DNA from: a virus
DNA: 64,000 nucleotides
Reading direction: 5' to 3' (one strand)
IMG/VR virus record: IMGVR_UViG_3300030117_004232
Location: 1 to 64,000 of that record
In this document: one piece after another, positions 1 through 24,987 of the stretch
Position numbering within the stretch: the first letter of the stretch is position 1
How the letters are laid out: each line of letters starts with the position of its first letter
Notes under the pieces: model-generated
The model's database searches: none
The model's input: the letters and a program-made list of their open reading frames with translations, nothing else
Told to the model about the DNA's origin: nothing
Made by a program: the position numbers and the translations under genes

Positions 1-1248
1 ATGGTTTTCAGTCACAGTCTTGAGCAGACGCTTGAGCACATGCGATTCATCCGAAACAATATCGAAAACACTGACATCCTCAAAGACTTGAAGCCGCAGG
101 GCAAGCCTTGGGCAAAGTCCTACTTTGAGTTCTCCAATGGCTCTCGTATCATGGCCAAGTCGGTCGGTGGTGCTACTCGTGGTTTCCACCCTGATGTCGT
201 AGTCTGTGACGACATTCTGTGGGGTACAACTGCGAGTGAACTCCAGCGTGCTGCCGACTGGTTCTATACCGTTCTTCTCCCTGTCCTTCACCACACTGGT
301 CGCCTCATGATGGTGGGGACACCTTTCTCTTACAATGACCTGTACGCCGAATTAGAGCAGAAGGCTGACGTGTTTACTGTGGAAACCTATCCAGCCATTC
401 TAGAAAATGGAGAGCCTCTTTGGCCCGGTCGATGGCCACTTGAAGCACTCAAAGTTCGTGAATCATCCATGCCTGCAATCAAGTTTGCGCGTGAGTATCT
501 TTGTGAGCCTATTCATGATACTGCGAGTATGTTTCCCAATTCTTTGCTTGAGCAAGCCAGAGATGAGAACTTGGTTATTCTTGACAAGGCAGAAATGGAA
601 TATGACGAAGAAGGTGAATCAGCCGGTGTGTTCGGTCAACATTTCATTGGTTGGGACCCTGCGATTGCGTCTGATTCTAACGCTGACTACACTGCTATGG
701 TTACCATTCGTACACCGCCCGGCTCTGAAGAGAAACAGATTGTCAATGTGCTGAACGAAAAGGGGCTGGGCAGCACTGCTCAGAAAAGACACATTATCCT
801 TCTAAACAGTCGATTCCAACCTGATTTGATTGAACTTGAAGGCAACAACTTCCAGCGAATGTTTGAAGCAGAACTCAAAGAGATGCGAGAGGACATTCCA
901 ATCAAGACCTTTATGACAACTCGTCAGCGCAAAGAGTCGATGTTCATGTCATTGCTCATGGCATTTGAGCAAGGTAAAATCAAAACCCCTTGGGGCGATG
1001 AGCGAAGCAGAGAATTCACACGAACATTAGAGACCCAATTAACCCGATTTGGTATGCAAAAGAATGGGCGCTTAGAGTCTGTTGGTGTACACGATGACTT
1101 GGCCATGGCACTTGCTTTGGCCAACTGGGCAACCAAGGAGTTCAGAGGCTCTTTGGTATCGCTAGACGACTATCTAGGCGGATTCGACGAATGGTTTGGA
1201 GATGTGCCACAGAACCATGTGGCAGGAGCGAATTGGTTCGTCGCTTGA
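1..1248 (+). CDS. terL: Terminase large subunit, 5' end cut by window edge
   Basis: ATP-driven DNA packaging motor with nuclease, acting at the portal vertex. The first visible residues (VFSHSLEQ, then an RFIRNN helix) match the strand and helix that follow the Walker A loop in terminases. The Walker A is not present, so the true start lies upstream of the window and the ATG at base 1 is probably an internal Met. Walker B is VVVCDD (residues 66-71) and the coupling motif is near VGTPFS (105-110). The RNase H-like nuclease shows GWDPA (218-221), the acidic IELEGNN (277-283) and the terminal HDDLAMALA (364-372). The neighbouring portal and protease genes agree with this call. Confidence 0.92.
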   Translation: MVFSHSLEQTLEHMRFIRNNIENTDILKDLKPQGKPWAKSYFEFSNGSRIMAKSVGGATRGFHPDVVVCDDILWGTTASELQRAADWFYTVLLPVLHHTGRLMMVGTPFSYNDLYAELEQKADVFTVETYPAILENGEPLWPGRWPLEALKVRESSMPAIKFAREYLCEPIHDTASMFPNSLLEQARDENLVILDKAEMEYDEEGESAGVFGQHFIGWDPAIASDSNADYTAMVTIRTPPGSEEKQIVNVLNEKGLGSTAQKRHIILLNSRFQPDLIELEGNNFQRMFEAELKEMREDIPIKTFMTTRQRKESMFMSLLMAFEQGKIKTPWGDERSREFTRTLETQLTRFGMQKNGRLESVGVHDDLAMALALANWATKEFRGSLVSLDDYLGGFDEWFGDVPQNHVAGANWFVA

Positions 1249-1297
1249 CGTAATGCTCATTAGGGAGTTTATGACACCAAAATGTGAGGGGAGATGT

Positions 1298-2608
1298 ATG
1301 TGGCCATCATTAGCAGTCGGTCAATCGGCACACACCCTCGACATGGGTGATGAAACCTTGACTCAAATCGCAAATGCATTATCAGCACACCCACTTCTTA
1401 AATCTCAACCTTTGCTTGCAAAAGGCATTGCTTCTCAGACAATTTTACCATCGGTCGATGCCATTGTTACACCGTCAGTAGATTTTGCACCGACAGGTGA
1501 CAGTTGGTTCGATACTCATGTTGGTAAGAGCGCAAAAGAAGTTGTCAAGGATTTGCGCAAAATTCGTCGTAAGATGAAGGATTCTAAAGAAGACATTGAC
1601 GCGGCCATCAAACAAGTTCGTATGCTGAAACGAATGGAAGTAGATGCGACATTGGCCAAGTTGTCTTGGGCGCAACCGCACCACGATACCATTCGTCAAC
1701 TTGGGCTGACTGACAAAACACTCAAGGCATTACGTCTTTTTGGCAATCGAAGGGAAACCAGTCTACTGCGAGCATGTAACCTATGGGAAAATGCAGAATC
1801 TACTCTCAAGCAACTGGATGAGTTCCAAGATGTGTGGGGAGATGAAGAGCGATTGTCTTGGGTCAATGCGATGGAAAACAAGTCTGACGCCCGAAAGATG
1901 TGGAAGGCCGCCTTGCACCAAATCGATTCTTTGACTGAAGAGCAACAGAAATGGCTTAAGATGGCAAAGCAAGAGATTGAAACTCATGGGTCTATGAAAG
2001 CCCGTGCGATTACTGAAAATATGATTTCCAAGGGTGTACCCAGAATCAATGCTACAAGAATGTCAAAGTTGCTAAAGATGTATGGTGAAGAGTTGAATAT
2101 CATCAAAGGTCATCGTAAAGGAGAATACATGTGCATTAGTTCAGAAGGTTTGGTTATGAAAGACCCTTGGGCTTATGCAGCGGGTTTCCTTGATGCTGAT
2201 GGTTACATTACCATCACTGAACGCGGTGAGCCTCGTGCGGGCTTCTTAGCAACTGGGGAGCGCGGGCGCATGCATTGCGAGGAGTTGCACAAAAACATTG
2301 GTGCGGGCGTCTTGCAACTAGACCAAAAAATCTACTCGGACAGTCAAAAAAGCCAACACCGAGTTACATTCTATTCCAAAGACGATTTGACAAAGTTGTT
2401 GGATAAAATTACGCCTCACTTGAGAATGAAAGACATGCAGGCAAAGGCTGTTGTTGCGTTTATCAGCGAACAAGACCCGCTGAGAAAAACTCAACTCAAA
2501 CGCTTTGTACAGTTCTCTAACCGCGACGGAACGACCAAAGGTGAGGAGTCACTCCGCGAATGGGGAGTAGACAAAGATACAGTGCTAAGTTGGGCGGAGG
2601 GATTGTGA
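1298..2608 (+). CDS. LAGLIDADG-domain protein with long helical N-terminus
   Basis: The 436-residue product is called from the ATG at 1298, just after GAGGGGAG; the frame is open further upstream but overlaps terL. Residues 1-230 are helical and unrecognised. Residues about 235-280 look like a winged-helix segment. Residues about 290-395 form a LAGLIDADG-like domain with the signature AAGFLDADGYI (294-304), an acidic residue at the usual metal-binding place, and the expected alternating strands after it. A single motif suggests a homodimeric endonuclease or a DNA-binding relic. The gene sits between terL and portal and its stop overlaps the portal ATG (TGATG). It is not inside another coding sequence, so it is neither an intein nor an obvious intron gene. 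A role in packaging is possible but unproven. Confidence 0.7.
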   Translation: MWPSLAVGQSAHTLDMGDETLTQIANALSAHPLLKSQPLLAKGIASQTILPSVDAIVTPSVDFAPTGDSWFDTHVGKSAKEVVKDLRKIRRKMKDSKEDIDAAIKQVRMLKRMEVDATLAKLSWAQPHHDTIRQLGLTDKTLKALRLFGNRRETSLLRACNLWENAESTLKQLDEFQDVWGDEERLSWVNAMENKSDARKMWKAALHQIDSLTEEQQKWLKMAKQEIETHGSMKARAITENMISKGVPRINATRMSKLLKMYGEELNIIKGHRKGEYMCISSEGLVMKDPWAYAAGFLDADGYITITERGEPRAGFLATGERGRMHCEELHKNIGAGVLQLDQKIYSDSQKSQHRVTFYSKDDLTKLLDKITPHLRMKDMQAKAVVAFISEQDPLRKTQLKRFVQFSNRDGTTKGEESLREWGVDKDTVLSWAEGL

Positions 2609-4383
2609 TGGCAGAGCAAAAAGGTAGAGTCAGAAGACTATTGGATTCAATCGGAAATCCATTTCGTAGAAGAAGCACACCAGAGCCCTCAATGCCTCTG
2701 TGGACTACAGGTATTCAAGAGCCGGTATTGGTTCAGGGTATTACAATTCCAGCACTGTATGCAGTGGCCAATGAAAATCTAATTCTAAGGACTGTGCTTA
2801 CCACTCTTCAACAAGAAATTTTCCGCCGTGGTTATTACTGGGAGAAGTCATTTCACAAGAAGTGTTTAGACTGTGATGAAGAGTATCAGCATGATACCGA
2901 AGAATGCAAACAGTGTAACAGTACAAACTTAGTTACCCCTGACGTAAATCAGTTGGTTTATCCAAAGTGGTTGATTGAACAGCGAAACAGCATGGAACAG
3001 ACGTTTATGGATGTGCTTCGTGAGATTGAGTATGACCTTAACGTCACTGATGATGCGTTTTTGGTTTTGGTTAAGGAGTATTATATCGACCCCGAAAGCA
3101 ATGAAGTTCAGTTTTATCGAATCAAAGAGATTCTCCGTGGTGACCCTATCTTTATGCGCATCATCGCTGACAAGCGTGGTGTTAGAGGTGGGCGTTTCAG
3201 AGTTTGTCCTGTGCACCGAAATGAAGTGCATGCCTACTCACAAGAAGAAAAGCATTGTCAAATCTGCGGCAACGAATTGCAAGATGTGCACCACGTCAAC
3301 ACGGCAGGTTCTGGTAAGACACAATACTACTTGGAAGGCGAAGTCATCCATGTAAGTAAGTACCAACCGAGCAAACTGTATGGTCGCTCTCCTGTTTCTA
3401 CACTGTGGCGCCAAGCCATGACATTGACTGCCATGGATAATTACATGTACACAGCATACTCAAAGCGACGTATTCCTCGTGGCATTCTATCTGTTACCAC
3501 TGACAACCTTGAGTCGATGAAGTCTTTCTTCAAGTCAACAGATGAGAAATTAGAACGTGACCCACACTACATCCCTAAGATTGGTATTGAATCAACTACT
3601 GGTCGTGGCGGAATCAATTGGATTAAACTGATGGATAGCCTTGAAGAGATGCAATACATTCCTGCGCGTGACGAAATGCGGCAGCGGATTGCTGCATTCT
3701 ACGGTGTATCGAATGTGTTTATGATGGACACAGGTAAGTCTGGTGGTCTGAACAACGAAGGTATGCAAATTCTTGTAACCAATCGTGCAGTTGAATTCGG
3801 GCACAAAGTGTACACAGAGCACCTGTTCCCTAGACTCATGGAAGAGATGGATGTGACTGATTGGAAACTTACCTTGTATCCGAATGAAGAGGAAGATGAA
3901 GTCACTCGCTTGCGACGTGATGAGATGGAAGTCAACATTGCACAGCGTATGATGATGCTCGGCTTTACCCCTCAGTTAGAAGAAGATGCGCAAAGAGACA
4001 TTCGATTCAGATATTCTCAGCCTGACCCTGCTGCGGGTCCACCGGGCGGAGGTATGCCACCCGGCGGAGGTATGCCAATGGGCGGAGTACCTATGCCCGG
4101 TATGCAAATGGGTGGCGGTATGGGCACACCCGGTGCTTTGCCCAGTCGTAACATCAGTCCACAAGGTGCAGCGCAAATGGCTAGACAAGCACAAGCAGGT
4201 ATGCCAAACCCCGGTGGAGAAGGCGCGGGTCTGAGAAATCGAGGCCCTGCCAGCCCACAAAATAGAACGTCTATGGGCGCAGGCTCACCCGTTTCTAGTG
4301 TCCAACAAAGAGGGCCACAACCAAGCCCTGCACAGCAGACATCTCAGGGTATATTGAACGCCCGTCAATTCAGGGGCGCTTGA
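2608..4383 (+). CDS. Portal protein with two zinc-binding inserts
   Basis: The 591-residue portal forms the ring through which DNA enters and leaves the head. The start at 2608 has GGAGG seven bases before and overlaps the previous stop. Family features include the N-terminal RTVLTTLQQEIFRRG helix, the long central region with VIHVSKY and LYGRSPVSTLWRQ, and the late YGVSNVFM and NNEGMQILV segments. Unusually, there are two cysteine clusters: C86/C89/C100/C103 and C200/H203/C217/C220, both likely zinc knuckles. The C-terminal 120 residues are a Gly/Met/Pro-rich low-complexity tail and probably disordered. Gene order after terL supports the call. Confidence 0.9.
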   Translation: MAEQKGRVRRLLDSIGNPFRRRSTPEPSMPLWTTGIQEPVLVQGITIPALYAVANENLILRTVLTTLQQEIFRRGYYWEKSFHKKCLDCDEEYQHDTEECKQCNSTNLVTPDVNQLVYPKWLIEQRNSMEQTFMDVLREIEYDLNVTDDAFLVLVKEYYIDPESNEVQFYRIKEILRGDPIFMRIIADKRGVRGGRFRVCPVHRNEVHAYSQEEKHCQICGNELQDVHHVNTAGSGKTQYYLEGEVIHVSKYQPSKLYGRSPVSTLWRQAMTLTAMDNYMYTAYSKRRIPRGILSVTTDNLESMKSFFKSTDEKLERDPHYIPKIGIESTTGRGGINWIKLMDSLEEMQYIPARDEMRQRIAAFYGVSNVFMMDTGKSGGLNNEGMQILVTNRAVEFGHKVYTEHLFPRLMEEMDVTDWKLTLYPNEEEDEVTRLRRDEMEVNIAQRMMMLGFTPQLEEDAQRDIRFRYSQPDPAAGPPGGGMPPGGGMPMGGVPMPGMQMGGGMGTPGALPSRNISPQGAAQMARQAQAGMPNPGGEGAGLRNRGPASPQNRTSMGAGSPVSSVQQRGPQPSPAQQTSQGILNARQFRGA

Positions 4384-4770: not shown

Positions 4771-5142
4771 ATGAGTGAAGAAGAGAGTAATGTCGCAGAG
4801 CGACTAATGGGTGCACTTATTTCAAAAATGGAAAATATGGATAGTGAGTTGCAAATACTCAAGTCAGAGAATGCTCAGTTTAGGGCTGCATTCAATGACC
4901 CTGCTGTGATGTTAAGGAAGGCTGGCTTTGTTCAGGCTCAAACTCGCCGACCAGCAGATGTCCTTGCTGACCCATTCCGAGGAGAAGGGGATGAATTTAT
5001 TTTGAAGGGCTTCGATGGAGAAGTCATTACCGCGCCTGAAACAAATGCAGATTTCCACGCAATGGATTGGGCAGATATTCACCAACTTGCTGAACAAGCC
5101 AAGAGTGTAGGTGCGATAGGCAATAATGTTGGTATGGAGTGA
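4771..5142 (+). CDS. Coiled-coil head-region protein with MDWxxxHQLA C-terminus
   Basis: The 123-residue acidic protein has a short N-terminal coiled coil (about residues 5-38) and then an LRKAGF segment. It ends with MDWADIHQLAEQAKSVG. The MDW-x3-HQLA block also occurs at the very C-terminus of the protease-scaffold protein (12385-12439), where LRKA also precedes it. In HK97-like phages the scaffold C-terminus binds the capsid protein, so this protein may share a capsid-binding peptide. That is inference. The stop overlaps the region of the next gene's start. Confidence 0.75.
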   Translation: MSEEESNVAERLMGALISKMENMDSELQILKSENAQFRAAFNDPAVMLRKAGFVQAQTRRPADVLADPFRGEGDEFILKGFDGEVITAPETNADFHAMDWADIHQLAEQAKSVGAIGNNVGME

Positions 5143-5147
5143 TAGAT

Positions 5148-5579
5148 ATGAAACCACGATTTGAACCAAGAAGTGCAGACTTTGACGCATTGTTGAAAGA
5201 AGCGCTAGAGTTAGAAGAAAAATTAATTGAAAAGGCTCAGCCCGGATACAAGGAAAAGGAAGGCGCTACAGTAGGTCCTGAAGGATTTTACACTGTTGCT
5301 GGTGGAGGAAAGAAGAATGTACGAAACCAAGGCTATCAGACCAACAATACAACCATTGAGGTCGAGGATGTCAAGAACAAAGGGGCCATTTCAGAGAACA
5401 GTGATGTAGCAACACGCGAATCACCTTACTATCCTACTGCATTTAGCACCACTGGTGCACTAGAGAACTCAGCCGGTGGAGAAGGTCCAGTAATGAAATC
5501 TGTTGGCGGCTCAGTTGAGCGTATCCAAGTTCAAGACTTGAAGAAGTCTGTGGACCGCCTTGCCCGCCGTCTTGAGTGA
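5148..5579 (+). CDS. Small head-region protein, function unknown
   Basis: The 143-residue product is called from the ATG at 5148, with GGAG eight bases before; an in-frame GTG at 5139 is the alternative. The N-terminal helix (FDALLKEALELEEKLIEK) is followed by a Gly/Asn-rich, probably disordered middle. The C-terminal basic helix is VQDLKKSVDRLARRLE. No family is recognised. Its position suggests a minor head component made with the large protein that follows. Confidence 0.7.
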   Translation: MKPRFEPRSADFDALLKEALELEEKLIEKAQPGYKEKEGATVGPEGFYTVAGGGKKNVRNQGYQTNNTTIEVEDVKNKGAISENSDVATRESPYYPTAFSTTGALENSAGGEGPVMKSVGGSVERIQVQDLKKSVDRLARRLE

Positions 5580-5595
5580 ACGGCGGGTGGTGTGG

Positions 5596-8500
5596 ATGCG
5601 AGATGGTCCGTTAGACAGTCTGGATAGGGCTAGGGCAACCTTTCTCGCTTCGATTGGTGACAGCGTCGGTAAGGCTGATGCTGGGGCCGACTTCTACTTC
5701 GCTGCACTGAATGCAAAGCGGCATGGCTATGTGCTCAAAGGCTCTGATGAAGGGCTGCTGAACATGTTCAATTCGATTATCAAAGAAGAGATGTATGATG
5801 AAGTTGGGGGCACAGAAGCCCCCGGCTTTGCTGACCCTTTGGCACCTGCTGGTCAAGAGGCCCAATATGCGGCTGGACTTCAACACGGTGGGCAAAGGAT
5901 ACCGGATACTGTTTGGAATCCAGATAGAGTCGTTCGGCCAGTGGCAGGTCAATCTCTTTCTGGTCGTGACTTTGAAATGACGGCTGGCAAGGCTGGGCTT
6001 GCTTATGCTGATACAGATGCGCTTCGCCATGGCCCACTATATGCACAGGGCAAAGACGCAGACTCAACGGCTATGATTGATGCAGTATCAACTTTCTACC
6101 TTCCAGATGACCGTTATGGTGAAAGACAAAGTGAAATTGATGCTAAGAAAGAATTGGCTTGGGACAAACATCACGAGACAGGAGAGAGTGACTTTGTATT
6201 GGGTCCTCGATTTTATGGACGTTTGCCTGAAAATATGACAAATCATGCTCAGTACGAAAGGCATTTTGACGGGTGGAAAAGAAATAACCCAGATGCTGTA
6301 AGAGAACTGACAGAAATACATGGGCCAGAGGGCGATGATGCAGTAGACCATGCAATTAGAACAGCCCACATGGATGAAGCAAGAAGAGGTTGGTCGAATG
6401 AGAATAAACTTGGGCTGTTCGATTATCTGTTTGGTTTAGAGTGGCACACTCCTGAACAGCGCGATAAGATTTACCAGCACATGAGAGAACATGGCGTATC
6501 GAACAAAAGTCGTGCAGATATTGACAATGGCTTAAGTCACACTTCTCGACTTGTACGTAACTTCCAACAGAGATTTGCACCGATGTATAACCATTGGATT
6601 CGGCATGCACATGCTGGTGGAGAAGTATTTGAGCACACCGGCATTGGTTTGGGTGGAGACAGTCCTTCTCTCCAAACAAATTTTCAGGCTATAAATTCAA
6701 TTAGCGGTGGTTATGAAAAGGCTGTCGAAAATTGGGAAAATATGACTGGAGAGAAGTTGGGAAGGTATCCTAGACTTAATGCAAAGGGAAAACCACACAA
6801 ACAAGCAGGTGAATTCAATGAACAATTAGTAGTCAATGCTAATGGTCAACTTGAGAGAAAAGAAGGATTTTCTTCAAAAATAAATCAAGCCACGTTGTTG
6901 GCTTTATTGAATGTAGACCCAAGAACTAATGAAATACATACACCCGGAAATCATCCACAATACAAAAACTGGCACCCTTCTCAATCAGCATTCACTCAAG
7001 ATGAAGTAGACCACATTTTGAAGGAAACAGACAGGATTCAAAAACAAAAACGTGCAGGTCGAATTGGCAGAAACGCAGGCGGAATGCATTACTATGCACA
7101 TATAGACCCAGATATGTATTCGCATGATGTAACACAAGGGGACCACCGAGGGCTGGCTTACCATTGGAATCAGCCGTTTAGAGGTGTAGGTGGTATGATG
7201 GGGCATCCGAATACATTGTTTAATCTCCTGCATGAACATGGCTTGTTTTTGCATGACACTAAGGTTGATGAAAATGGTAACCCCCTCCCTTTCCAAAATG
7301 ACTTTGGTGAAAGCGAAAGTTTGTTGTTTAATCGTTCTTCAACTGAGGACCAAATCCGACTTAGGGTAAGAGAAAATACAATGGAAGGGGGTACTGCATT
7401 TGCTGGTGGCGCGTCTAGAATTGCTGACGGTATGATGATGGCTGCTTTGGCTCCGTTTGGCCAAACAAGTCCTGAACTTACATCGTTTAAGCAACAAAAG
7501 CGTGGCAAATTAACAGCAGAAACAAGAGTGGACCAAGGTGATATTACTGATTCTGAAGATGCCCTACATGGTCACATTGGTTCCCTTAGTGGTAAGAGTG
7601 ACCGAAGGGAGCCAAAATTTAGAACGGCATATCATCCGAGCCCAAAGTATGCAAACCAAGCGCGTAAGCAGCATAAAAGGTCATTTGAAGAGAATGATGC
7701 TGCTGGAATGAAGGAGGTCAAAGATGCGTTCAATGGCGTTACCGCTGGAAGCATTCCACTGATTCATTCAAAGTCCGGGTCAAAAGGTGGCTTTGCTCAT
7801 GGTATGGAACACGTTCGTCGAAAGATTGCGCATGCGTTTCATCGAATCGGCACTGCACTTGGCTTTGCCAATCCACGACTACGTCCTTCTGCTCGTGTTG
7901 CTGATATGAACTTACCTAGACCTGAAGTTATTCCTACAGCAGCAAGTCACGATGTCATTTCTGCCTTGGGACATCGCCAATTTATCGATGACCCCATATT
8001 GGCTGAAGGTGCACACTCTGATGCTTTGAGTGAAAAGTTAGAGCAACAGAATGAAGCCTTTGATAGAATGATGTTGATAAATGATAAAATCAAATCTACT
8101 GATAATGAAGTAGAAAGGAAGAATCTTGAATTAGAGCGCGACCATCTTCAGGAGGAAATAGAGAAATTAGGTGCAGATATAGATTCTGCTGGTCCTACCC
8201 ATAACATTCAGCAGACAAGAACAGAGCAAGATGTTCTGCGCTCGCACACAAACGCAATTGCTGAAAGGGCCAAACAATACCTACCGATGATGAACCCTGC
8301 TCTATTCCACCCTAGCCTTCCGCTTGAGGTGCTAGAGGGTAACGTCATGCAATATGCCGCGATGATAAACCAAATGCTTGCGCGTGAGCCGCATGAAAAT
8401 CATGGTTTACCCGTTTTGGGCAATGCTGAAGCGGCCATGCAAGAACAAGAAGTACGCCCGCGCCCTTCAGATGTCAAAGAGTTCATTCATGGCAACAGTA

Positions 8501-11028
8501 AGTTCAAGGCTAAGGCCAGTCATTCTGCTGAACAATTAGCACAAGGGCTTGGATTAAATTATGAAGATGCGCATGTACAGGCTTCGATGCAACATTTGTC
8601 CAATCAGATTCGTGATATGGCAAAGGCTCGTGGTGACATGGAATTGGAATTTCCCATAATGACTGTGGCAGAATTGATGAGTCGAGGCGGTCATTATGGA
8701 GAGCACGGGACACCTGAAGAAATGCGAGAGTTGGCATTACAGGCTGCGAATATGGGTTACAGCGGAGATGCCAAGGCCAATCTTGATTTTATGAATATGA
8801 GAATGAATGCTTTAGGTTTAGATGGTGAACTTGTTCCTTACAACAAAGAATTTGGTGGAATGGGTAGAACTGCAAAAGAGGGTGTAGAAGAAATTATGGC
8901 CGAGTTAGGTCTTAGATTTATCAACTCTCATTCAACTGACCCTAACTTCCCTCCTGAAAGAACATATTTACGAAATGTCAAAGGAAAGGAATACTACAAA
9001 AAGCGAAATCAGGCTGATGAAAACCGAAGACTTGGTTACAGAGAATTGCAAAGATTGAATTCTGTATTGATTAGTGACCCAACAAAAGAACCTAAGCGTG
9101 TTAAGGCTGTTGATGCCAAGATGCAAGGTGGACTTGTACCCACAAAATTAGGACCTATGGATTCTCGCTCAGAATCGGTTATTCACTCTCTATACAACTC
9201 AACTGGATTCAACCATCACTTGGGAGATAAAGTCAAAACAACTTTTGATTTTCACATTGACCACAACGGCAAGCCTACAATTCACCCAACTCCACCCCGC
9301 GATATTCGTTTAAACGGACCATTAGAGAGTTTCTGGAGTACAGTTTTCCCTGACCTTGCTCACATTTTGCATCCTGATTATGTTCATCATACAGGAGAAA
9401 CTGCGCAAGGTTTGAACACACTAGATAGAATGAATCATCAAAGTAAGCCACACCCCGTTGACGGTTCTCGGCATCTGGAAGACCCCCTGAAGAAAGGTAT
9501 GAATCTAGCAGCCTTGACCAACCCTGATATTATCCGCAAGGAGTTGGGAGACAAGGTTCCACTATTGCAACCCATGCATCGCATCTTTGAATTAGATGAC
9601 CTTGAGCACCTTCGTGGATTCACAGGCGACTGGGTGGTTTCTCACATGCCTGAAGGTGAGCGTGGGTTTGTCATTAAGAAAGATGACAAGGTCACATCAT
9701 CTAACTTCGACTTGTCTGAAGAAACCAAAGACAACTTCAAGAAAGTGGCTGATGAAGACTTTAGAGTCGACGTTATTGAATTAGAGGATGGATACTACAT
9801 CTTTGATGTACTAGAGTTTGATGATAAAGAAGTCCATGATATGACAACTGGAGACCGCATCAAGATTATTCGTGGGGGAATGGAAGGTACTGGTAATGTA
9901 CATGTTCCATCTGCAAGTGATACGCGTCTTACAGATGATGCTGGTTTGGAATTGACAGTGACTGATTTGCAGAAAGAGCATGATAGAATATTACTCAGAG
10001 ATGCTAAGTCTACTTACATGGCTGGAGAACTTCGACAACCCAAGTGGGTATTGCTCAGTCCCGGCAATGATGTTGTACTCATGGTTCTTGAACGCAGAGG
10101 CAACGGCCCCTACACATATCGATTGGGTACTGGACCAATTACACAAGATGAATCACTTGGTAAGCGTGGTGTTGAGATTGATGGCAATACCTACATGGAT
10201 ATGGGTGCCGCCTTTGATAGTTCTGAAAAGTTCAATGTTGGCGACCATGTACGTGTCAACGTAGCCAACGTAGGTGAAATGGAAACCAATGGTCAGAAAC
10301 TGTACAATGTATCCGCTTCAGAAATTGTCAGTGAAGCAGAAGGTGAAGGACTGGTAAGTCAGGAAACACTTGCTTTGCTGGCCAAGTCGGAATCTGAGCA
10401 ATGGTTGTGTGAAGTTCAGCGTACAGCCAGTGGAGTGCGAATTACAATGCCACAGGGTGATGTTGTGTACAAGACCACACAATCTGGAAGCCTATGGACT
10501 ATGCATAGCCCGTTGGCCCCCAACCACTATCTCATCCGTTTGGCTGAAAGTCAAAGACCCTATTGGGCACCTGTAGCGGGTGCAATGCTCAAGGCTGATG
10601 TTGATATTGCTGAGAAAGAAGAAGTGCACGACAATGGGTATGAAGCCGGTGAGGCCAAGCCGTTCATCAAGCCAAAGAAAATCAAAGACACGAATTGGTG
10701 GGCAAAAAACGAGAAGCAGAAGGTTTTGGTCAAAGGCTTGAAACTTGTTGAACAGATGCTCAAGAGTGGTGTTGGTTCTGTTGGTACAACGACTACAGGT
10801 ACAATGGGCTTGGGCATTGGGTATGCAACTCCTATAGAATCGCCTACTGGTCCTACAAACCTACATGATGCAAAAACCATGCCTGACTATGACAACAAAA
10901 AGCGACCCGGAGAAGACTACTCTATAGAACCGGGTACGGAGGAAGAAGAGGGGGCTAAACACATGACTGTGCCCCTAAAGGAAGGTACACTTGAGGTATC
11001 TGACTCCACGGCTCGCTTCCATAGTTGA
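5596..11028 (+). CDS. 1810-residue head-region protein with degenerate DNA-ligase-like domain
   Basis: The start is set at the ATG at 5596; the frame is open slightly upstream but overlaps the previous gene. Most of the protein is not recognised. It is rich in His, Asn and charged residues, with a coiled coil at about residues 815-865. Residues about 1320-1560 read like the adenylation and OB domains of an ATP-dependent DNA ligase. A motif I position holds GFTGDW (1341-1346) without the nucleotide-accepting Lys. A motif IIIa-like YYIFDVLEF lies at 1400-1408. RILLRDAKSTYMAGE followed by KWVLLSP (1464-1489) matches motifs IV-V but lacks their key Glu and Lys residues. It would therefore bind rather than seal DNA, if this reading is right. 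Position before the protease suggests a virion or assembly protein, perhaps packaged inside the head. Confidence 0.65.
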   Translation: MRDGPLDSLDRARATFLASIGDSVGKADAGADFYFAALNAKRHGYVLKGSDEGLLNMFNSIIKEEMYDEVGGTEAPGFADPLAPAGQEAQYAAGLQHGGQRIPDTVWNPDRVVRPVAGQSLSGRDFEMTAGKAGLAYADTDALRHGPLYAQGKDADSTAMIDAVSTFYLPDDRYGERQSEIDAKKELAWDKHHETGESDFVLGPRFYGRLPENMTNHAQYERHFDGWKRNNPDAVRELTEIHGPEGDDAVDHAIRTAHMDEARRGWSNENKLGLFDYLFGLEWHTPEQRDKIYQHMREHGVSNKSRADIDNGLSHTSRLVRNFQQRFAPMYNHWIRHAHAGGEVFEHTGIGLGGDSPSLQTNFQAINSISGGYEKAVENWENMTGEKLGRYPRLNAKGKPHKQAGEFNEQLVVNANGQLERKEGFSSKINQATLLALLNVDPRTNEIHTPGNHPQYKNWHPSQSAFTQDEVDHILKETDRIQKQKRAGRIGRNAGGMHYYAHIDPDMYSHDVTQGDHRGLAYHWNQPFRGVGGMMGHPNTLFNLLHEHGLFLHDTKVDENGNPLPFQNDFGESESLLFNRSSTEDQIRLRVRENTMEGGTAFAGGASRIADGMMMAALAPFGQTSPELTSFKQQKRGKLTAETRVDQGDITDSEDALHGHIGSLSGKSDRREPKFRTAYHPSPKYANQARKQHKRSFEENDAAGMKEVKDAFNGVTAGSIPLIHSKSGSKGGFAHGMEHVRRKIAHAFHRIGTALGFANPRLRPSARVADMNLPRPEVIPTAASHDVISALGHRQFIDDPILAEGAHSDALSEKLEQQNEAFDRMMLINDKIKSTDNEVERKNLELERDHLQEEIEKLGADIDSAGPTHNIQQTRTEQDVLRSHTNAIAERAKQYLPMMNPALFHPSLPLEVLEGNVMQYAAMINQMLAREPHENHGLPVLGNAEAAMQEQEVRPRPSDVKEFIHGNSKFKAKASHSAEQLAQGLGLNYEDAHVQASMQHLSNQIRDMAKARGDMELEFPIMTVAELMSRGGHYGEHGTPEEMRELALQAANMGYSGDAKANLDFMNMRMNALGLDGELVPYNKEFGGMGRTAKEGVEEIMAELGLRFINSHSTDPNFPPERTYLRNVKGKEYYKKRNQADENRRLGYRELQRLNSVLISDPTKEPKRVKAVDAKMQGGLVPTKLGPMDSRSESVIHSLYNSTGFNHHLGDKVKTTFDFHIDHNGKPTIHPTPPRDIRLNGPLESFWSTVFPDLAHILHPDYVHHTGETAQGLNTLDRMNHQSKPHPVDGSRHLEDPLKKGMNLAALTNPDIIRKELGDKVPLLQPMHRIFELDDLEHLRGFTGDWVVSHMPEGERGFVIKKDDKVTSSNFDLSEETKDNFKKVADEDFRVDVIELEDGYYIFDVLEFDDKEVHDMTTGDRIKIIRGGMEGTGNVHVPSASDTRLTDDAGLELTVTDLQKEHDRILLRDAKSTYMAGELRQPKWVLLSPGNDVVLMVLERRGNGPYTYRLGTGPITQDESLGKRGVEIDGNTYMDMGAAFDSSEKFNVGDHVRVNVANVGEMETNGQKLYNVSASEIVSEAEGEGLVSQETLALLAKSESEQWLCEVQRTASGVRITMPQGDVVYKTTQSGSLWTMHSPLAPNHYLIRLAESQRPYWAPVAGAMLKADVDIAEKEEVHDNGYEAGEAKPFIKPKKIKDTNWWAKNEKQKVLVKGLKLVEQMLKSGVGSVGTTTTGTMGLGIGYATPIESPTGPTNLHDAKTMPDYDNKKRPGEDYSIEPGTEEEEGAKHMTVPLKEGTLEVSDSTARFHS

Positions 11029-11059: not shown

Positions 11060-12439
11060 ATGGTCCTGACCACTCAGATGCGCACTTCCCCTGTTGAACA
11101 CAGCGGAAGCATCAGTATTGTCAAGGCAGATAATGACCTTGTCATCGCAGGTTACGCATCTGTAGAGATGGTTGACAAGCAAGGTGACCTTATCACACGC
11201 GGAGCCCTAAAGGATGCCTTTGATGGATTCATGAAGGCTGATGGATTCCGCAATGTACAACTCGCACACTCCAACATTCAGGTTGGTAGTGTTATTCCTT
11301 CGTACACTGACTCTGACGGTCGTGTATGGAAATCCGGTGTCGATGACGCCGGTATGTTCGTTGTTATCCAACTAAGGGATGACATCGAAAAGGCTCGTGA
11401 AGTAGCCAATGAAATTCGCAAAGGGGCCCTTCGTGGCTTCAGTATTGGAGGGCAAGCGTTCAAGCGCATGCGTAAGAGTGACCAACAACACGGTGACTAC
11501 ACTGAAATCTCCAAACTGGAATTGCACGAGGTAACCATTTGCGAAAAGGGTATCAATCCCGAAGCGACCTTCCGCATATTGAAGGAGGACACAACAATGA
11601 GTGATGAAATGAATGCATTGGAAGAACTAGGCAGCGTCTTGGACCGCTTGAGCAAGCGGATGGACAACATGGAAAAGGGCGAAATTCCCGAGGGCTTGAA
11701 AGAGCACATGAAAGACGAGAAAGACGAAAAAGGCGATTCCGACGAAAAAGACAATGGAGATGACAAAGACATGGACAAAGAAGAAAAAGGCATGTACAAA
11801 GGTGATGACCAATACGCCGATGTTATCAGCAGCGAGTACCTAAACTGGATGGAAAACACACTGAAGTCTCAGGGTGTTGACACTGGTGCAGCCCGTGCTC
11901 ACTTTGATGACATCAACAAGGCCAACCTTGGTAGCACACCTGAGCAAATCGGCGACGGCGCTAACTACTTTGGCGGACAAGTTAAGGGACGTGCACAAGA
12001 AGGTGGAAGTCCATCAACTAACGCTATCAGCCGCATGAACAGTGGCGGCGGCGGAGAAGTTGCAAAGGGTTACCTCGCACCTGATAACGTATCAGCAAGC
12101 GACCTAGAGGCAGCATACGAAGTCTACAAGGCCGCAGCACTAGAACAACAATTCAAGGGTAACTTGAACACAGTGTTCTCTGACCGACTACAGAAGGAAC
12201 TCAGCGCAGAAGCAGAGGCACGCGAAGCCTCTTCCTTTGACGCTCGTGGACCTCTCGCAAGCATTGAGAAGGCAATCGCTGACCTCGGTGCTCGCATCGA
12301 TGGACTTACTTCAGAAGAAGGTGGAGCAACTCTCCGCAAGGCAGTTGACCAATCCGCTGTCGAAATCCCTTCCACTGAAGAACTAGCAAACATGGACTGG
12401 AGCCAAGTACACCAGTTGGCTGGGAGTGTTTGGAACTGA
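11060..12439 (+). CDS. Prohead protease fused to scaffold
   Basis: This 459-residue protein has an HK97-type prohead protease (peptidase S78/U35 family) as residues 1-175. The probable catalytic His is H70 in QLAHSN and the Ser is S128 in LRGFSIGG, with LHEVTICEKGINPEA as the conserved end of the domain. Residues 180-459 are the scaffold: a coiled coil, an extremely Asp/Glu/Lys-rich linker (about 205-255), then helices and a C-terminal MDWSQVHQLAGSVWN. The protease would cut scaffold and capsid protein during head maturation. It lies directly before the major capsid gene, as is usual. A nested start inside the gene can make scaffold alone. Confidence 0.9.
   Translation: MVLTTQMRTSPVEHSGSISIVKADNDLVIAGYASVEMVDKQGDLITRGALKDAFDGFMKADGFRNVQLAHSNIQVGSVIPSYTDSDGRVWKSGVDDAGMFVVIQLRDDIEKAREVANEIRKGALRGFSIGGQAFKRMRKSDQQHGDYTEISKLELHEVTICEKGINPEATFRILKEDTTMSDEMNALEELGSVLDRLSKRMDNMEKGEIPEGLKEHMKDEKDEKGDSDEKDNGDDKDMDKEEKGMYKGDDQYADVISSEYLNWMENTLKSQGVDTGAARAHFDDINKANLGSTPEQIGDGANYFGGQVKGRAQEGGSPSTNAISRMNSGGGGEVAKGYLAPDNVSASDLEAAYEVYKAAALEQQFKGNLNTVFSDRLQKELSAEAEAREASSFDARGPLASIEKAIADLGARIDGLTSEEGGATLRKAVDQSAVEIPSTEELANMDWSQVHQLAGSVWN
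11597..12439 (+). CDS. Nested scaffold protein from internal in-frame start
   Basis: Codon 180 of the protease gene is an ATG preceded by AAGGAGG at 11582-11588 with eight bases of spacing, an ideal ribosome-binding site in the middle of a gene. The predicted 280-residue product starts exactly where the protease domain ends and contains the coiled coil, charged linker and capsid-proximal C-terminus. The arrangement matches lambda C/Nu3, in which scaffold is made from an internal start and outnumbers the protease fusion. Expression has not been shown here. Confidence 0.65.
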   Translation: MSDEMNALEELGSVLDRLSKRMDNMEKGEIPEGLKEHMKDEKDEKGDSDEKDNGDDKDMDKEEKGMYKGDDQYADVISSEYLNWMENTLKSQGVDTGAARAHFDDINKANLGSTPEQIGDGANYFGGQVKGRAQEGGSPSTNAISRMNSGGGGEVAKGYLAPDNVSASDLEAAYEVYKAAALEQQFKGNLNTVFSDRLQKELSAEAEAREASSFDARGPLASIEKAIADLGARIDGLTSEEGGATLRKAVDQSAVEIPSTEELANMDWSQVHQLAGSVWN

Positions 12440-12468: not shown

Positions 12469-13632
12469 ATGGCACGAAATTATATGCGAACAGTAAATGA
12501 CATGGAGCGCTACTACTACGGCGCTGGCAGTTCAATGGGCTACTCCTACAGTGGCTCAGAGTTGCTCAAAGCGGATGCACCGCTCCTAAGCACAACTGCT
12601 GGTACCTACCAAGCAATCTACGGACGAAAGGTATGGTCACAGTTGAACCAAGAATTCAACGCTTTCAGCGTTCTACCCAAGAAGCCTTGGGACCGAAGCG
12701 GATGGCGCGTTGTCACCGCAAAGCCTTCCAAGACTGTCGGCGGCGGTATTGCTGAGAACGGTACACTACCAGAAACCACCAAGCCTACTTTCCAGCATGT
12801 GGCTGCAAAGCCCAAGACTGTGGCTCACTCATTCGATATGAGCGAAGTTGCAATCTTCCTTAACGACAAGGATGATGGTCTAGGTGACATCCGCTCAGTT
12901 CTCAAAGAAGAGATGGGCAAGCACCACGCAGAGCACATCAACGATATGCTACTTACTGATGTAGACACCCCAGCAGGCAACGACATCGAGTCGCTTGACC
13001 GTGTAACGGCAGCATTCAGTAACAACGCAACTACCACAACTGGTCTAGTCAATGGACACGACAACCTAAGCGCCGATGCAGACCTAGACATCTACAGCAT
13101 TGACCGAAGTGCAAACTCATGGTCAAACGCTGAGCACAGCAACAACGCTGTGTCCAACACATCAACCAACAGAACCCTCAGTCTTGACCTTCTTGACGAT
13201 ATGTTCCAGCGAATCTGGGTTCGTGGTGGTAACCCCAAGGTTATGTTGACTGGATATGATACACTAATGCGCATCCAGCAACTACTACAGAGCCAACAGC
13301 GATTCATGGAAGAAAAGCGTGTTGTCCCAACCTACAACGGCGTAAAGGGTGTTCCCGGCGTCGAGGCTGGTTTCATTGTGGCTACCTACAACGGTGTCCC
13401 AATCATTCCAACCAAGGAAATGACATCTGATGGCATCAGCCGTATCTACATGATGGACACAGATTACTTGTACTTCAGTACTGGTAAGCCCACACAATAC
13501 TTTGAGTCTGGCATTGAGACTGGTGACCCATTCGCCATCAACCGCCTTGGACAAGAGGGACTTTACCGAACAATGGGTGAAGTTTGGACTACTTTCTTTG
13601 GAGGTCAAGGTTCAATCCGCGACTTGCAGTGA
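12469..13632 (+). CDS. Major capsid protein, HK97-type
   Basis: The 387-residue shell protein has an excellent ribosome-binding site (GGAGG) and follows the protease-scaffold gene. The N-terminal region is Tyr/Gly-rich. AIYGRKVWSQLNQEFNAFSVLPKKPW marks the entry into the HK97 fold. VAHSFDMSEVAIFLNDKDDG is an E-loop/spine-like stretch. The C-terminal half has a clear A-domain pattern (VMLTGYDTLMRIQQLL, GVPIIPTKEM, IYMMDTDYLYF). Length and order are those of tailed-virus capsid proteins. The fold is inferred from pattern and position. Confidence 0.88.
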   Translation: MARNYMRTVNDMERYYYGAGSSMGYSYSGSELLKADAPLLSTTAGTYQAIYGRKVWSQLNQEFNAFSVLPKKPWDRSGWRVVTAKPSKTVGGGIAENGTLPETTKPTFQHVAAKPKTVAHSFDMSEVAIFLNDKDDGLGDIRSVLKEEMGKHHAEHINDMLLTDVDTPAGNDIESLDRVTAAFSNNATTTTGLVNGHDNLSADADLDIYSIDRSANSWSNAEHSNNAVSNTSTNRTLSLDLLDDMFQRIWVRGGNPKVMLTGYDTLMRIQQLLQSQQRFMEEKRVVPTYNGVKGVPGVEAGFIVATYNGVPIIPTKEMTSDGISRIYMMDTDYLYFSTGKPTQYFESGIETGDPFAINRLGQEGLYRTMGEVWTTFFGGQGSIRDLQ

Positions 13633-20245: not shown

Positions 20246-20664
20246 ATGGAGATATAGACCCGCGCACAGTAGAGGCGATGGACAAATTCAAGCAATACAG
20301 CCAAGAGGCCAGTCAAAATATGAGGACCTTGCAACAGCACATGGACAAGTTCACCAATTCCATGGCAATGACAAAATCACATACAACCGACTTGCGTGAA
20401 TCGTTGCGACAAATGGGAGCAACTCAGCCTTTCCAGCAGATTATGACACAGCAATCTGTAACTGAAAGGCGAGTTGCTGGTGGGGCGCAGTCACCCGAAG
20501 AGCAGGGTAATGTAACGGTCAATCTGCGAATTGATGTCAGCGGAGTTACTGATAAGACTGACAAGCGGCAACTGGCAAAGGAAATCAGCGCAATGGTCAT
20601 GAAAGAAGTACGGGCGAAAATGGGTGGCCCGCTCAATACAAGTGGGTTTAGTCGGAGTGGTTGA
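20239..20664 (+). CDS. Short helical tail protein, possible minimal tape measure
   Basis: The 141-residue product starts at a GTG with a strong GGAGGGGAG upstream. Residues 10-60 are a Gln/Met-rich coiled-coil-like helix. A strand (VTVNLRIDVSGV) and a helix (RQLAKEISAMVMKEVRAKMGG) follow, similar to the C-terminal end of many tape-measure proteins. It sits where a tape-measure gene of 600 or more codons is usual. Either the tail is very short or the ruler lies elsewhere. Confidence 0.45.
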   Translation: MVDGDIDPRTVEAMDKFKQYSQEASQNMRTLQQHMDKFTNSMAMTKSHTTDLRESLRQMGATQPFQQIMTQQSVTERRVAGGAQSPEEQGNVTVNLRIDVSGVTDKTDKRQLAKEISAMVMKEVRAKMGGPLNTSGFSRSG

Positions 20665-23180
20665 GTTTGGTCAAGAATTACGCTGATGGTGAGCGCGTTC
20701 CAATTCGCCTCGTTCAAGAGAACGGGGATGCTATTGAGTTGGATGCCACCAGCATCGACATGGTTGTCGAGCGCATTCAGAGTAATTTTGGCATTCCGTT
20801 TATGTCGGCCAAGAAGTTTGGTATCGATTTGAACCAAGCGGCTGTTATGTTTGAAGTACAGGGTGTGTTTACTGATGAGGCCGGGCAGGAGGCTACATCT
20901 GGTGCAGTAGCCCACATCGACTTTCACCAAACACAGTGGGCTAACCCTCCAAAGCCCGGAGGTAGACCAAGTGGTCAAAGTTCTAAAGGGGAGGAAAAGC
21001 AAGGGACCTATACTAGTTCTGAAGAGCAAGAGTATGAATCTGTAGGGGAAAGGAACTATGGCTTCATTATCAAAAGAGATACAACTACAAAGCAACTTTA
21101 CGACAACTGGCATAAGAAGAAACTCAAATTTCCTGTAGGATATTGGTTGGACCAAGCGACTGCCAATACACTCCCGTATACAACCAATCTACAGTTTTGG
21201 TTTGATGCAGGGCAGTCTGTAACAGGGGTTGCACACGGTGGCTCTATTTCTTCATTTACAGATAAGAGTTCCAATGCTTTCACTTTCACTGCTAGTAGCA
21301 ACCCAAAGTACAACAAGTATGGTGCAAATGGTCGACCTTATGTTTTCTTTGATGGAACAGATGATTATTTTAGCATCAGCAACAGTGACGCAATTGATAC
21401 TGCAATAAATGCTGCAACTGTAACAATTTTTACTGTTGCTCATACTGAAGTTGATAACGGTGATAAGCAGACTATTTTTTCAACCACTGATAATCCGAAC
21501 AAAGGTTACGAAGTTTACCATGATATGACAGGTTCTGAAAATCGAGCCGAAGCCACTGTATACAATAGTGGTGCAGACCAAACAATTACTGGTGATACGG
21601 ATTCAATTACAACAACTGACCCTGTAATAATCTGCGCACAAATGGCTGCCGGAACACTAGATATTTTCGTAAATGGTAAAAAGGCTACTCAGGTAACTGG
21701 CTCTAACATTTACGTGCCAGCCGATACCAATGATGTTTACCTTGGTGCGCTACATAATGGCTCAACAGAAGCCGATTTCTTTTCAGGTAGAATCTATGAA
21801 ACTATCATGTACAGTAGTGCGTTGAGCACAAATGACAGACAACTGATTGAAGGTTATCTAGCACATAAGTACAACATTGGGTTAGTAGGCGAAAGTGGAA
21901 GTGAAGAGACTCATCGGTACCATATCAACGGTCAACACACTTATCTTCCAGATGCTGGTTACGCCACGGTTATCTTTGATACTCAGCGAGCCCCATCTAA
22001 AAATGAGCCGTTTGGCTATCTTAATACTCACCGAAGCACGAGCCTAACCGTTGACGCTGGCGCTACTCCTACAACCACGAGTTGTAGATTATCTGGCAAC
22101 ATCAAAGAGTGGGTAGAAAGTGGTAACTCCAACAGACCATACAAAATTAGTTTCTTTAGAAGCGGTGCCCACATCCAAAATACAACCCTGCGTTCTGTAG
22201 ATTCGGGCGGGACTAATATCACATTTGACCCTATTACAGCCCCTCAAGTTGGTGATGTGCTTCATCTTGCTCCAGATAATGTCATACAATTTAGTGCTCA
22301 TTATGGTGAGCCAGCGCTTGTTTTACCACTGCTGAATGCAGGTGACGATTCAACTACAGGTGGCCCTACTTATCCAAACTATGCTGATGGAACCACTCGC
22401 TTTGCTGGGACTGCGCTTTCATCCCTTAGTACAACTATCACGCGCACGGATGAATACATTGCGCATACATTAGCACAACTACTAAGTCATTCTTCCATTA
22501 GTATCGGTGAAAGAGCCGTAAACGACAATGGTGATACTACTATGGACAAAGTATTCTCTACCAGTGTAAGCACGGCTGGTGATGGCTCTAAGACGCTACT
22601 GAAAATTACTCAGGTACACAAGTCAAATTTCGGTCGATTAGGACTAGGTGCGAACATCAGAAGCGGCTTACCATCAGACAAAACCCCTCTTATCAGAGGA
22701 TTCACAGGTGGTAAGAGTGGCAAGACTGTCAAGTCCGCAGGTGACAAGGTGCAAGACATTCTAGGTATCTTGGGCAACAGCCAGAACTTTGCGTCAAACC
22801 ATGGTGGGACCATTGGTGACTTTATTGAATCGTTTTCGGGTGCGTTGACCCAAGGTGTATACGATGAAGCACTTAGTGGAGATTATATCACCGCCATTCA
22901 AATTCCATACAATTCGTTAGTTACGTTAGGTCAAAGTTCACTTGACACAGAAGTAGCACAGCGTAACTTCTTCTTGACTGTAGGTAACGTCAATACTGCA
23001 CTCAAAACTTCAGTTTCTAATGTCACTCATGCATCCAAGCGATACGCGCCCTACGAAGGGCATACAAGCGCAAGAAATGGCATTCATGGCATTGTCACTG
23101 ACTTCAATGTCAAACGAGATGCTGCAATGAAAGCATACGAATTCAGCCTGCAATTTATCGCAGCAGACATCATCATCTGA
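20661..23180 (+). CDS. Tail-tip protein with LamG-like insertion (paralogue 1)
   Basis: The 839-residue product has no ATG near the start; TTG at 20661 (or TTG at 20667) with GGAG upstream is the likely start. Residues about 1-95 resemble the N-terminus of the next gene's product. Residues about 176-405 form a concanavalin/LamG-type jelly roll (NLQFWFDAGQS, YVFFDGTDDYFSI, VTIFTVAH, DIFVNGKKA, YETIMYSSAL), which typically binds sugars. The C-terminal block carries KSAGDKVQDILGI, IQIPYNSLVT, RNFFLTVG and YEFSLQFIAADIII, all shared with the next protein. It probably acts at the tail tip or baseplate. Confidence 0.6.
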   Translation: MSLVKNYADGERVPIRLVQENGDAIELDATSIDMVVERIQSNFGIPFMSAKKFGIDLNQAAVMFEVQGVFTDEAGQEATSGAVAHIDFHQTQWANPPKPGGRPSGQSSKGEEKQGTYTSSEEQEYESVGERNYGFIIKRDTTTKQLYDNWHKKKLKFPVGYWLDQATANTLPYTTNLQFWFDAGQSVTGVAHGGSISSFTDKSSNAFTFTASSNPKYNKYGANGRPYVFFDGTDDYFSISNSDAIDTAINAATVTIFTVAHTEVDNGDKQTIFSTTDNPNKGYEVYHDMTGSENRAEATVYNSGADQTITGDTDSITTTDPVIICAQMAAGTLDIFVNGKKATQVTGSNIYVPADTNDVYLGALHNGSTEADFFSGRIYETIMYSSALSTNDRQLIEGYLAHKYNIGLVGESGSEETHRYHINGQHTYLPDAGYATVIFDTQRAPSKNEPFGYLNTHRSTSLTVDAGATPTTTSCRLSGNIKEWVESGNSNRPYKISFFRSGAHIQNTTLRSVDSGGTNITFDPITAPQVGDVLHLAPDNVIQFSAHYGEPALVLPLLNAGDDSTTGGPTYPNYADGTTRFAGTALSSLSTTITRTDEYIAHTLAQLLSHSSISIGERAVNDNGDTTMDKVFSTSVSTAGDGSKTLLKITQVHKSNFGRLGLGANIRSGLPSDKTPLIRGFTGGKSGKTVKSAGDKVQDILGILGNSQNFASNHGGTIGDFIESFSGALTQGVYDEALSGDYITAIQIPYNSLVTLGQSSLDTEVAQRNFFLTVGNVNTALKTSVSNVTHASKRYAPYEGHTSARNGIHGIVTDFNVKRDAAMKAYEFSLQFIAADIII

Positions 23181-24986: not shown

Positions 24987-24987
24987 T

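What the first reader, a model, noticed from the sequence alone, without database searches (positions are those of the whole stretch)
9560..10330. A catalytically dead DNA-ligase-like domain inside a large head-region protein
Residues about 1320-1560 of the 1810-residue protein follow the order of ATP-dependent ligase motifs. GFTGDW sits at the motif I position without Lys. YYIFDVLEF resembles IIIa. RILLRDAKSTYMAGE plus KWVLLSP resembles IV-V without the key Glu/Lys. A Gly-rich OB-like segment ending GDHVRVNV follows. A ligase fold placed among portal and protease genes would be a DNA-end- or nick-binding virion component, which I do not know from other tailed viruses.
Basis: partly seen in the sequence, partly recalled or inferred. 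Interest (0 to 1): 0.82.

Follow-up and report, generated by a model that had tools for sequence, protein, structure and literature searches.

The report
Dead DNA-ligase domain in virus head protein
Viruses of abundant ocean archaea carry, among the genes that build the virus head, a giant protein that contains a DNA-joining-enzyme fold with its key catalytic residues lost but otherwise strictly preserved; it looks like an enzyme turned into a head component, and it may be why these viruses are listed as encoding their own DNA ligase.

Summary
ORF 5560-11028 (1822 codons; likely ATG start 5596, 1810 aa) lies between portal and S78 prohead protease in a magrovirus-like tailed virus of marine archaea. 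Residues ~1333-1608 form an ATP-dependent DNA ligase nucleotidyltransferase plus OB fold: PF01068 matches all 47 representatives, and the AlphaFold model hits archaeal and human ligases (Foldseek E 1e-10). Across 124 unique relatives the catalytic Lys, motif III Glu and first motif V Lys never occur. Yet the domain is the most constrained part of the protein (dN/dS ~0.01-0.07 against mostly 0.15-0.33 for N-termini): a pseudoenzyme, not decay. Hydrophobic-hydrophobic-K|[AS] motifs, enriched 3-5-fold in head but not tail proteins, cluster at its N-terminus and around the module, suggesting prohead-protease processing inside the head. DNA-end binding is not supported: module pI is ~4.7, against 9.6 for a genuine ligase in a sister genome. 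Of 35 contigs searched, only one has a separate canonical ATP ligase, so published "ATP-dependent DNA ligase" annotations in magroviruses may often refer to this dead domain.

The parts
5560..11028 (+). Large head-region protein; ORF opens at TTG 5560 (1822 aa), likely start ATG 5596 (1810 aa)
   Evidence: family alignment A2 begins at this Met, nearly invariant
5596..9555 (+). N-terminal region, fast-evolving, mostly helical, no Pfam/PHROG family and no PDB fold match (the part modelled ends at 9159)
   Evidence: pLDDT 77.5, pTM 0.72; best E 2.4
9556..10059 (+). ATP-dependent DNA ligase nucleotidyltransferase-like domain (residues 1333-1500), catalytically dead
   Evidence: PF01068; PDB profile; Foldseek; residue tallies (57, 81)
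9616..9633 (+).
9646..9663 (+). Degenerate motif I MPEGER (KxDGxR in ligases); catalytic Lys replaced by Met1363
9769..9777 (+). Degenerate motif III (DGE -> DVI, residues 1404-1406); Glu never present in family
9793..9819 (+). Motif IIIa-like YYIFDVLEF
9982..10059 (+). Motif IV-V region DRILLRDAKSTYMAGELRQPKWVLLS; catalytic E/K/K absent, S-x-Y-x-x-G and W framework kept
10060..10383 (+). OB-fold-like domain (residues 1501-1608); absent in one divergent clade
10384..10386 (+). Candidate prohead-protease site ALLAK|SESE after the OB domain (K1609)
   Evidence: Lys invariant in A1
10591..10593 (+). Candidate prohead-protease site GAMLK|ADVD (K1678)
10762..10764 (+). Candidate prohead-protease site EQMLK|SGVG (K1735)
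5671..5673 (+). Candidate N-terminal prohead-protease site DSVGK|ADAG (K38); relaxed motif (G allowed at P2); most relatives have a site at 30-38
10387..11025 (+). C-terminal region with small conserved domain and tail (conserved S-P-x-G-P-T and PDxD motifs)
2560..4383 (+). Portal protein (context)
   Evidence: PF04860, phrog_18178
11060..12439 (+). S78 prohead protease (context; presumed processing enzyme)
   Evidence: PF04586 E 2e-10
12469..13632 (+). Major capsid protein; ELLK|AD at residue 34 conserved in all relatives checked

Best explanation
An ATP-dependent DNA ligase core (nucleotidyltransferase plus OB) was captured by the head-gene module of the ancestor of these marine archaeal tailed viruses, lost the nucleotidyl-transfer residues, and was kept as a non-catalytic binding module near the C-terminus of a giant head protein. 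The precursor is probably drawn into the procapsid, cut by the neighbouring S78 prohead protease after Lys in hydrophobic-hydrophobic-K|[AS] sites (short N-terminal piece removed; the ligase/OB module and C-terminal pieces separated or trimmed), and stays in the head as an internal protein, perhaps ejected with the genome. The module most likely binds a protein partner or other ligand of the head rather than nicked DNA. Shown here: fold, loss of the catalytic residues, family-wide conservation, gene position, motif enrichment. Inferred: processing, packaging, ejection and the binding partner.
For: Fold. Dead: 0 of 124 unique domains has Lys at motif I, 0 has Glu at motif III, 0 has the first motif V Lys (47 representatives). 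Selected, not decaying: the domain is the most conserved part of the protein, dN/dS ~0.01-0.07 in usable pairs v mostly 0.15-0.33 for the N-terminal region. Fixed association: found across the loci fetched by capsid and portal searches and in 63 of 66 testable loci from a distant MCP search; gene order portal - small ORFs - this - protease - MCP in the five loci listed. Processing: [LIVMF][LIVMFA]K[AS] at 3.3x (this protein), 4.0x (other upstream head ORFs) and 4.7x (MCP) expectation v 0.77x in tail proteins; control motifs not comparably enriched; sites cluster at ~30-38, ~1311, ~1609, ~1678, ~1735; MCP ELLK|AD at residue 34 in all 19 checked and KAD kept in HVTV-1. Precedents: P1 DarB, a 251-kDa head protein encoded beside portal and protease, with a short N-terminal capsid-targeting sequence (PMC9024508); SPN3US prohead protease trimming head proteins (PMC10052503). 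Non-DNA partner: acidic module.
Against: No proteomics, so neither packaging nor cleavage is demonstrated. The K|[AS] motif was noticed in this window before it was tested on relatives, and those relatives are not independent of one another; the window itself lacks a clear site just before the domain (near 1311), and one relative (L157) has none. Whole-domain acidity does not exclude a local basic DNA-binding patch; several invariant residues are basic. Global TM-scores to ligases are low (0.3-0.4), as expected for a multi-domain query with a disordered tail, and hhalign against a single phage-type ligase gave nothing.
Confidence: 0.55

Rival explanations
1. DNA-end or nick-binding virion component: the dead ligase clamps the packaged genome's ends or nicks, in the head or just after ejection, protecting them or handing them to host ligase.
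For: Ligase NTase+OB surrounds nicked DNA in genuine ligases (family knowledge); both domains are present here; several invariant basic residues (R17, R44, R109, R114, K171 of A1). Catalytically inactive Lig4 keeps a structural repair role (titles and abstracts).
Against: Module pI ~4.66 and net charge -23 v pI 9.6, +11 for a genuine ligase NTase; no PF04675 DNA-binding domain; OB lost in one clade.
Confidence: 0.2
2. Still an enzyme with migrated catalytic residues, for example a nucleotidyltransferase using another nucleophile.
For: Strong conservation of a pocket-like set (GFTG[DE]W, [DE]GxR, DAKSxYMxGE); conservation typical of active sites.
Against: No Lys conserved at motif I; Glu of III and first Lys of V gone in every relative; nucleotide-binding framework largely lost.
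Confidence: 0.08
3. Purely structural portal-proximal or scaffold protein acting in assembly only; the ligase fold is an inert spacer and the protein is degraded or expelled during maturation.
For: Position beside portal and protease; K|[AS] sites; fast-evolving helical N-terminus.
Against: The ligase domain is the most constrained part, which is odd for a spacer; few candidate sites fall in the middle ~1250 residues, unlike a scaffold that is digested to peptides.
Confidence: 0.16
4. Recently decayed ligase or chance resemblance.
For: Single-sequence Pfam score is below the curated cut-off.
Against: Hundreds of relatives, all sampled ones with the same losses, under strong purifying selection; Foldseek E 1e-10.
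Confidence: 0.01

Closest known systems
ATP-dependent DNA ligases (archaeal Thermococcus/Pyrococcus/Sulfolobus, human Lig1/3/4; Pfam PF01068)
   Same: NTase and OB fold; motif order I, III, IIIa, IV, V; [DE]GxR of motif I, Asp of III, IIIa, and the S-x-Y-x-x-G...W framework of IV-V kept
   Different: Catalytic Lys, motif III Glu, conserved motif IV Glu and motif V Lys lost family-wide; no N-terminal DNA-binding domain; embedded in a ~1800-aa head-module protein; strongly acidic
Snurportin-1 m3G-cap-binding domain (PF21974)
   Same: By family knowledge, an NTase-like fold used for binding, not catalysis; weak sequence matches to 6 of 14 divergent members, best E 0.0037
   Different: Eukaryotic import adaptor; no cap ligand is known in archaea; sequence similarity is marginal
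Phage P1 DarB
   Same: Giant head protein encoded beside portal and prohead protease; packaged through a short N-terminal targeting sequence (PMC9024508)
   Different: No homology claimed or tested; DarB is an anti-restriction protein, not a pseudo-ligase
HVTV-1 gp115 (Druskaviridae, same slot)
   Same: Large protein between portal and prohead protease in the closest isolated relatives; annotated zeta toxin
   Different: No detectable homology to the window protein
Catalytically inactive DNA ligase IV
   Same: Precedent for a non-catalytic, structural role of a ligase (titles/abstracts PMC9638927, PMC10858965, PMC11754673)
   Different: A laboratory mutant of an active enzyme, not a natural pseudoenzyme

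Membership tests
ATP-dependent DNA ligase (active enzyme) | Nucleotidyltransferase fold / PF01068 similarity | tested here: met
ATP-dependent DNA ligase (active enzyme) | Motif I Lys (KxDGxR) that carries AMP | tested here: not met
   0 of 124 unique domains
ATP-dependent DNA ligase (active enzyme) | Motif III Glu | tested here: not met
   0 of 124
ATP-dependent DNA ligase (active enzyme) | Motif IV EGxxxK with conserved Glu | tested here: not met
   Glu position variable (D47, K26, E24 of 124), Gly position K/R/other, Lys mostly Arg
ATP-dependent DNA ligase (active enzyme) | Motif V Lys pair (KxK) | tested here: not met
   First Lys always L/M/I/V; second variable
ATP-dependent DNA ligase (active enzyme) | C-terminal OB domain | tested here: met
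   Model and Foldseek coverage for the window protein; missing in one clade
ATP-dependent DNA ligase (active enzyme) | N-terminal DNA-binding domain (large ligases) | tested here: not met
   No PF04675 match in 19 contigs
ATP-dependent DNA ligase (active enzyme) | Ligase activity | not testable with these tools
   needs protein
Head-internal protein matured by prohead protease | Gene in head module next to protease | tested here: met
Head-internal protein matured by prohead protease | Shares a cleavage motif with the MCP | tested here: inconclusive
   K|[AS] motif enriched and positioned, cleavage not shown
Head-internal protein matured by prohead protease | Present in virions | not testable with these tools
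   no proteomics
Magrovirus-like archaeal tailed virus (Magrovirales) | HK97-fold MCP and portal closest to Druskaviridae/magroviruses; PolB and chaperonin genes on the opposite strand | tested here: met
   against descriptions in PMC10768690 and PMC8651126; no named magrovirus record was available to compare directly

The most novel reading that the evidence does not exclude
A pseudo-ligase cut out of a giant head precursor by the prohead protease is packaged and ejected with the genome, where it holds or masks genome ends, or titrates a host ligase or clamp partner, at the start of infection: a virion-delivered, non-catalytic DNA-repair mimic found throughout an abundant group of marine archaeal viruses.
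Probability: 0.2. Interest if true: 0.85.

Novelty: new variant of a known kind. Interest (0 to 1): 0.62.

Why it matters
[quoted passage not shown] A family-wide, strictly conserved dead ligase in the head module points to a head function not described in the papers held. It also suggests a correction: papers credit magroviruses with an ATP-dependent DNA ligase as part of a near-complete replisome (PMC10160649, PMC10768690, PMC12999244), and one records the ligase gene together with the prohead protease gene on a single read (PMC7318539), which is the position of this dead protein. Only one of 35 contigs searched here (58-116 kb) has a separate canonical ATP ligase, so most of these viruses may depend on the host ligase.

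Tried and rejected
A single-sequence search of PDB sequences with the domain gave only a sortase at E 1.5; a profile was needed. Single-protein search for close relatives of the domain found none; relatives came through MCP and portal. tblastn in annotated phages: no match for this protein or for a divergent member; no relatives in genome contigs. HVTV-1 gp112-gp119 and a vir519 protein tested for homology with the full family profile: none at a useful score. hhalign of the domain against the sister genome's phage-type ligase: nothing. N-terminal 1188 residues: no Pfam/PHROG family and no PDB fold match. NAD-dependent ligase (PF01653): none in 19 contigs. The K[AS][DE] version of the cleavage motif was too weak per protein; the hydrophobic version was tested on relatives instead. 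An SPxGPT match between this protein's tail and the HVTV-1 protease tail was seen but is only six residues and was not pursued. Magrovirus records ON649702 and OR863078, and the Philosof 2017 and Zhou 2023 papers, were not held, so the suspected misannotation could not be checked at source.

Full report
What is there. The window is part of a 73,968-base virus record. Its terminase, portal, S78 protease and HK97-type capsid protein are closest, among annotated phages, to Druskaviridae of haloarchaea (MCP 33% identity to HVTV-1), and PolB and chaperonin genes lie on the opposite strand. This agrees with published descriptions of magroviruses, tailed viruses of Poseidoniales (PMC10768690, PMC8651126). 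Between portal and protease lies one ORF of 1822 codons (5560-11028).

Is the ligase resemblance real? Yes. PF01068 matches residues 1402-1496 of the window protein (E 8.7e-5 on the sub-region) and all 47 representatives (best E 4.1e-8). A profile of the nucleotidyltransferase part alone finds Thermococcus ligase at E 2e-4 and human Lig3 at 9e-4. AlphaFold2 models the nucleotidyltransferase at pLDDT ~90 and the OB part at ~70-87; the best Foldseek hits in the PDB are archaeal and human DNA ligases (E 1.2e-10), and the named viral hits are mostly DNA ligases and capping enzymes.

Where the motifs are. HMMER aligns ligase KYDGER to MPEGER (1363-1368), not to GFTGDW, which is the strand before it. 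The catalytic Lys is Met here. Over 124 unique domain sequences the position is M55, W18, Y16, H13, F11, Q6, L5, never K; motif III Glu is never E; the first motif V Lys is always L, M, I or V. What remains is the framework: Gly of motif I (124 of 124), its Arg (121 of 124), Asp of motif III (124 of 124), IIIa, and S-x-Y-x-x-G with Trp in IV-V (47 of 47). By sequence the enzyme is dead in the whole family.

Dead but not decaying. The domain is the best-conserved stretch of the protein. In close pairs where dS is not saturated, dN/dS is 0.01-0.07 for the nucleotidyltransferase against mostly 0.15-0.33 (range 0.06-0.33) for the N-terminal 1300 residues. Relatives from 34 to 84% identity keep it. 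It occurs in 63 of 66 testable loci from a distant capsid-protein search. The three without it (L338, L359, L362) look like another lineage and fill the same gene slot with other ORFs. No relative was found in cellular genome contigs.

Only ligase-like gene in most contigs. In 35 contigs of 58-116 kb (window included) PF01068 finds this protein every time and a separate canonical ligase only once (G001, 379 aa, 72 bits, with KFDGVR and FDGEL motifs). PF04675 and PF01653 find nothing in 19 of them. Contigs may be incomplete. Published accounts nevertheless state that nearly all magroviruses encode a DNA ligase (PMC10160649; [quoted passage not shown] That is this gene's position. I infer, without having seen the source annotations, that many of these calls refer to the dead domain.

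How it may work. Motif [LIVMF][LIVMFA]K[AS] occurs 67 times v 20.3 expected in this protein, 83 v 20.9 in other upstream head ORFs, 19 v 4.1 in the MCP set and 27 v 35.3 in tail proteins of 19 relatives; control motifs show no comparable pattern. In the MCP it is ELLK|AD at residue 34 in all 19, and KAD is kept in HVTV-1. In the large protein the sites gather near residues 30-38, 1311, 1609, 1678 and 1735: a short N-terminal piece, the edges of the ligase/OB module, and the tail. HK97's S78 protease also cuts after a Lys (own knowledge). I read this as processing by the neighbouring protease inside the procapsid; it is a statistical inference, and the motif was first noticed in the window. P1 DarB (251 kDa, encoded beside portal and protease, packaged through an N-terminal signal; PMC9024508) and SPN3US head proteins (PMC10052503) are precedents for such a life cycle.

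What it binds. The module is acidic (median pI 4.66, net -23) where a genuine ligase nucleotidyltransferase from a sister genome has pI 9.6, net +11; the ligase DNA-binding domain is absent; one clade has dropped OB. This argues against DNA-end binding as the default and for a protein or other ligand partner. Snurportin's cap-binding domain, which weakly matches some members, shows that a nucleotidyltransferase-like fold can become a binding module (own knowledge).

Verdict. A real, previously mislabelled or unlabelled pseudo-ligase in the head module of a large virus group; mechanism inferred; function testable.

Noticed in passing
window 4771-5142 and 11060-12439: The C-termini of the 123-aa ORF and of the prohead protease end in the same motif M[DSEN]W[ADSE][DEQ][IV]Hx[LM]A, also in relatives (L013, L048, L054, L010, L055): probably a shared capsid- or scaffold-binding peptide.
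   Followed up: partly
L359, L362; L162 (HVTV-1 gp115): Sister viruses fill the portal-protease slot with several ORFs bearing K[AT][KR]VYVKNPxxAPxGxxxxxGxxGGxYY, resembling a motif at the start of HVTV-1 gp115 (annotated zeta toxin): possibly a cargo or packaging module.
   Followed up: no
L233 (G001:11420-15022): A genuine phage-type ATP-dependent DNA ligase (379 aa) coexists with the dead one in one contig.
   Followed up: partly
window 24979-41238: A single 5419-aa ORF in the tail region; not analysed.
   Followed up: no
window 1196-2608: 470-aa ORF overlapping the end of terminase, with an HNH endonuclease domain (phrog_5046) at residues 322-432.
   Followed up: no
window 45129-46619: Virus-encoded Cpn60/TCP-1 family chaperonin (PF00118, E 4e-128).
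   Followed up: no
window 5596-9159: The 1188-residue N-terminal part folds with fair confidence (pLDDT 77.5, pTM 0.72) but has no PDB match (best E 2.4): possibly a new fold.
   Followed up: partly
window 20661-23180: Laminin_G_3 (concanavalin A-like lectin) domain in a tail-region protein.
   Followed up: no
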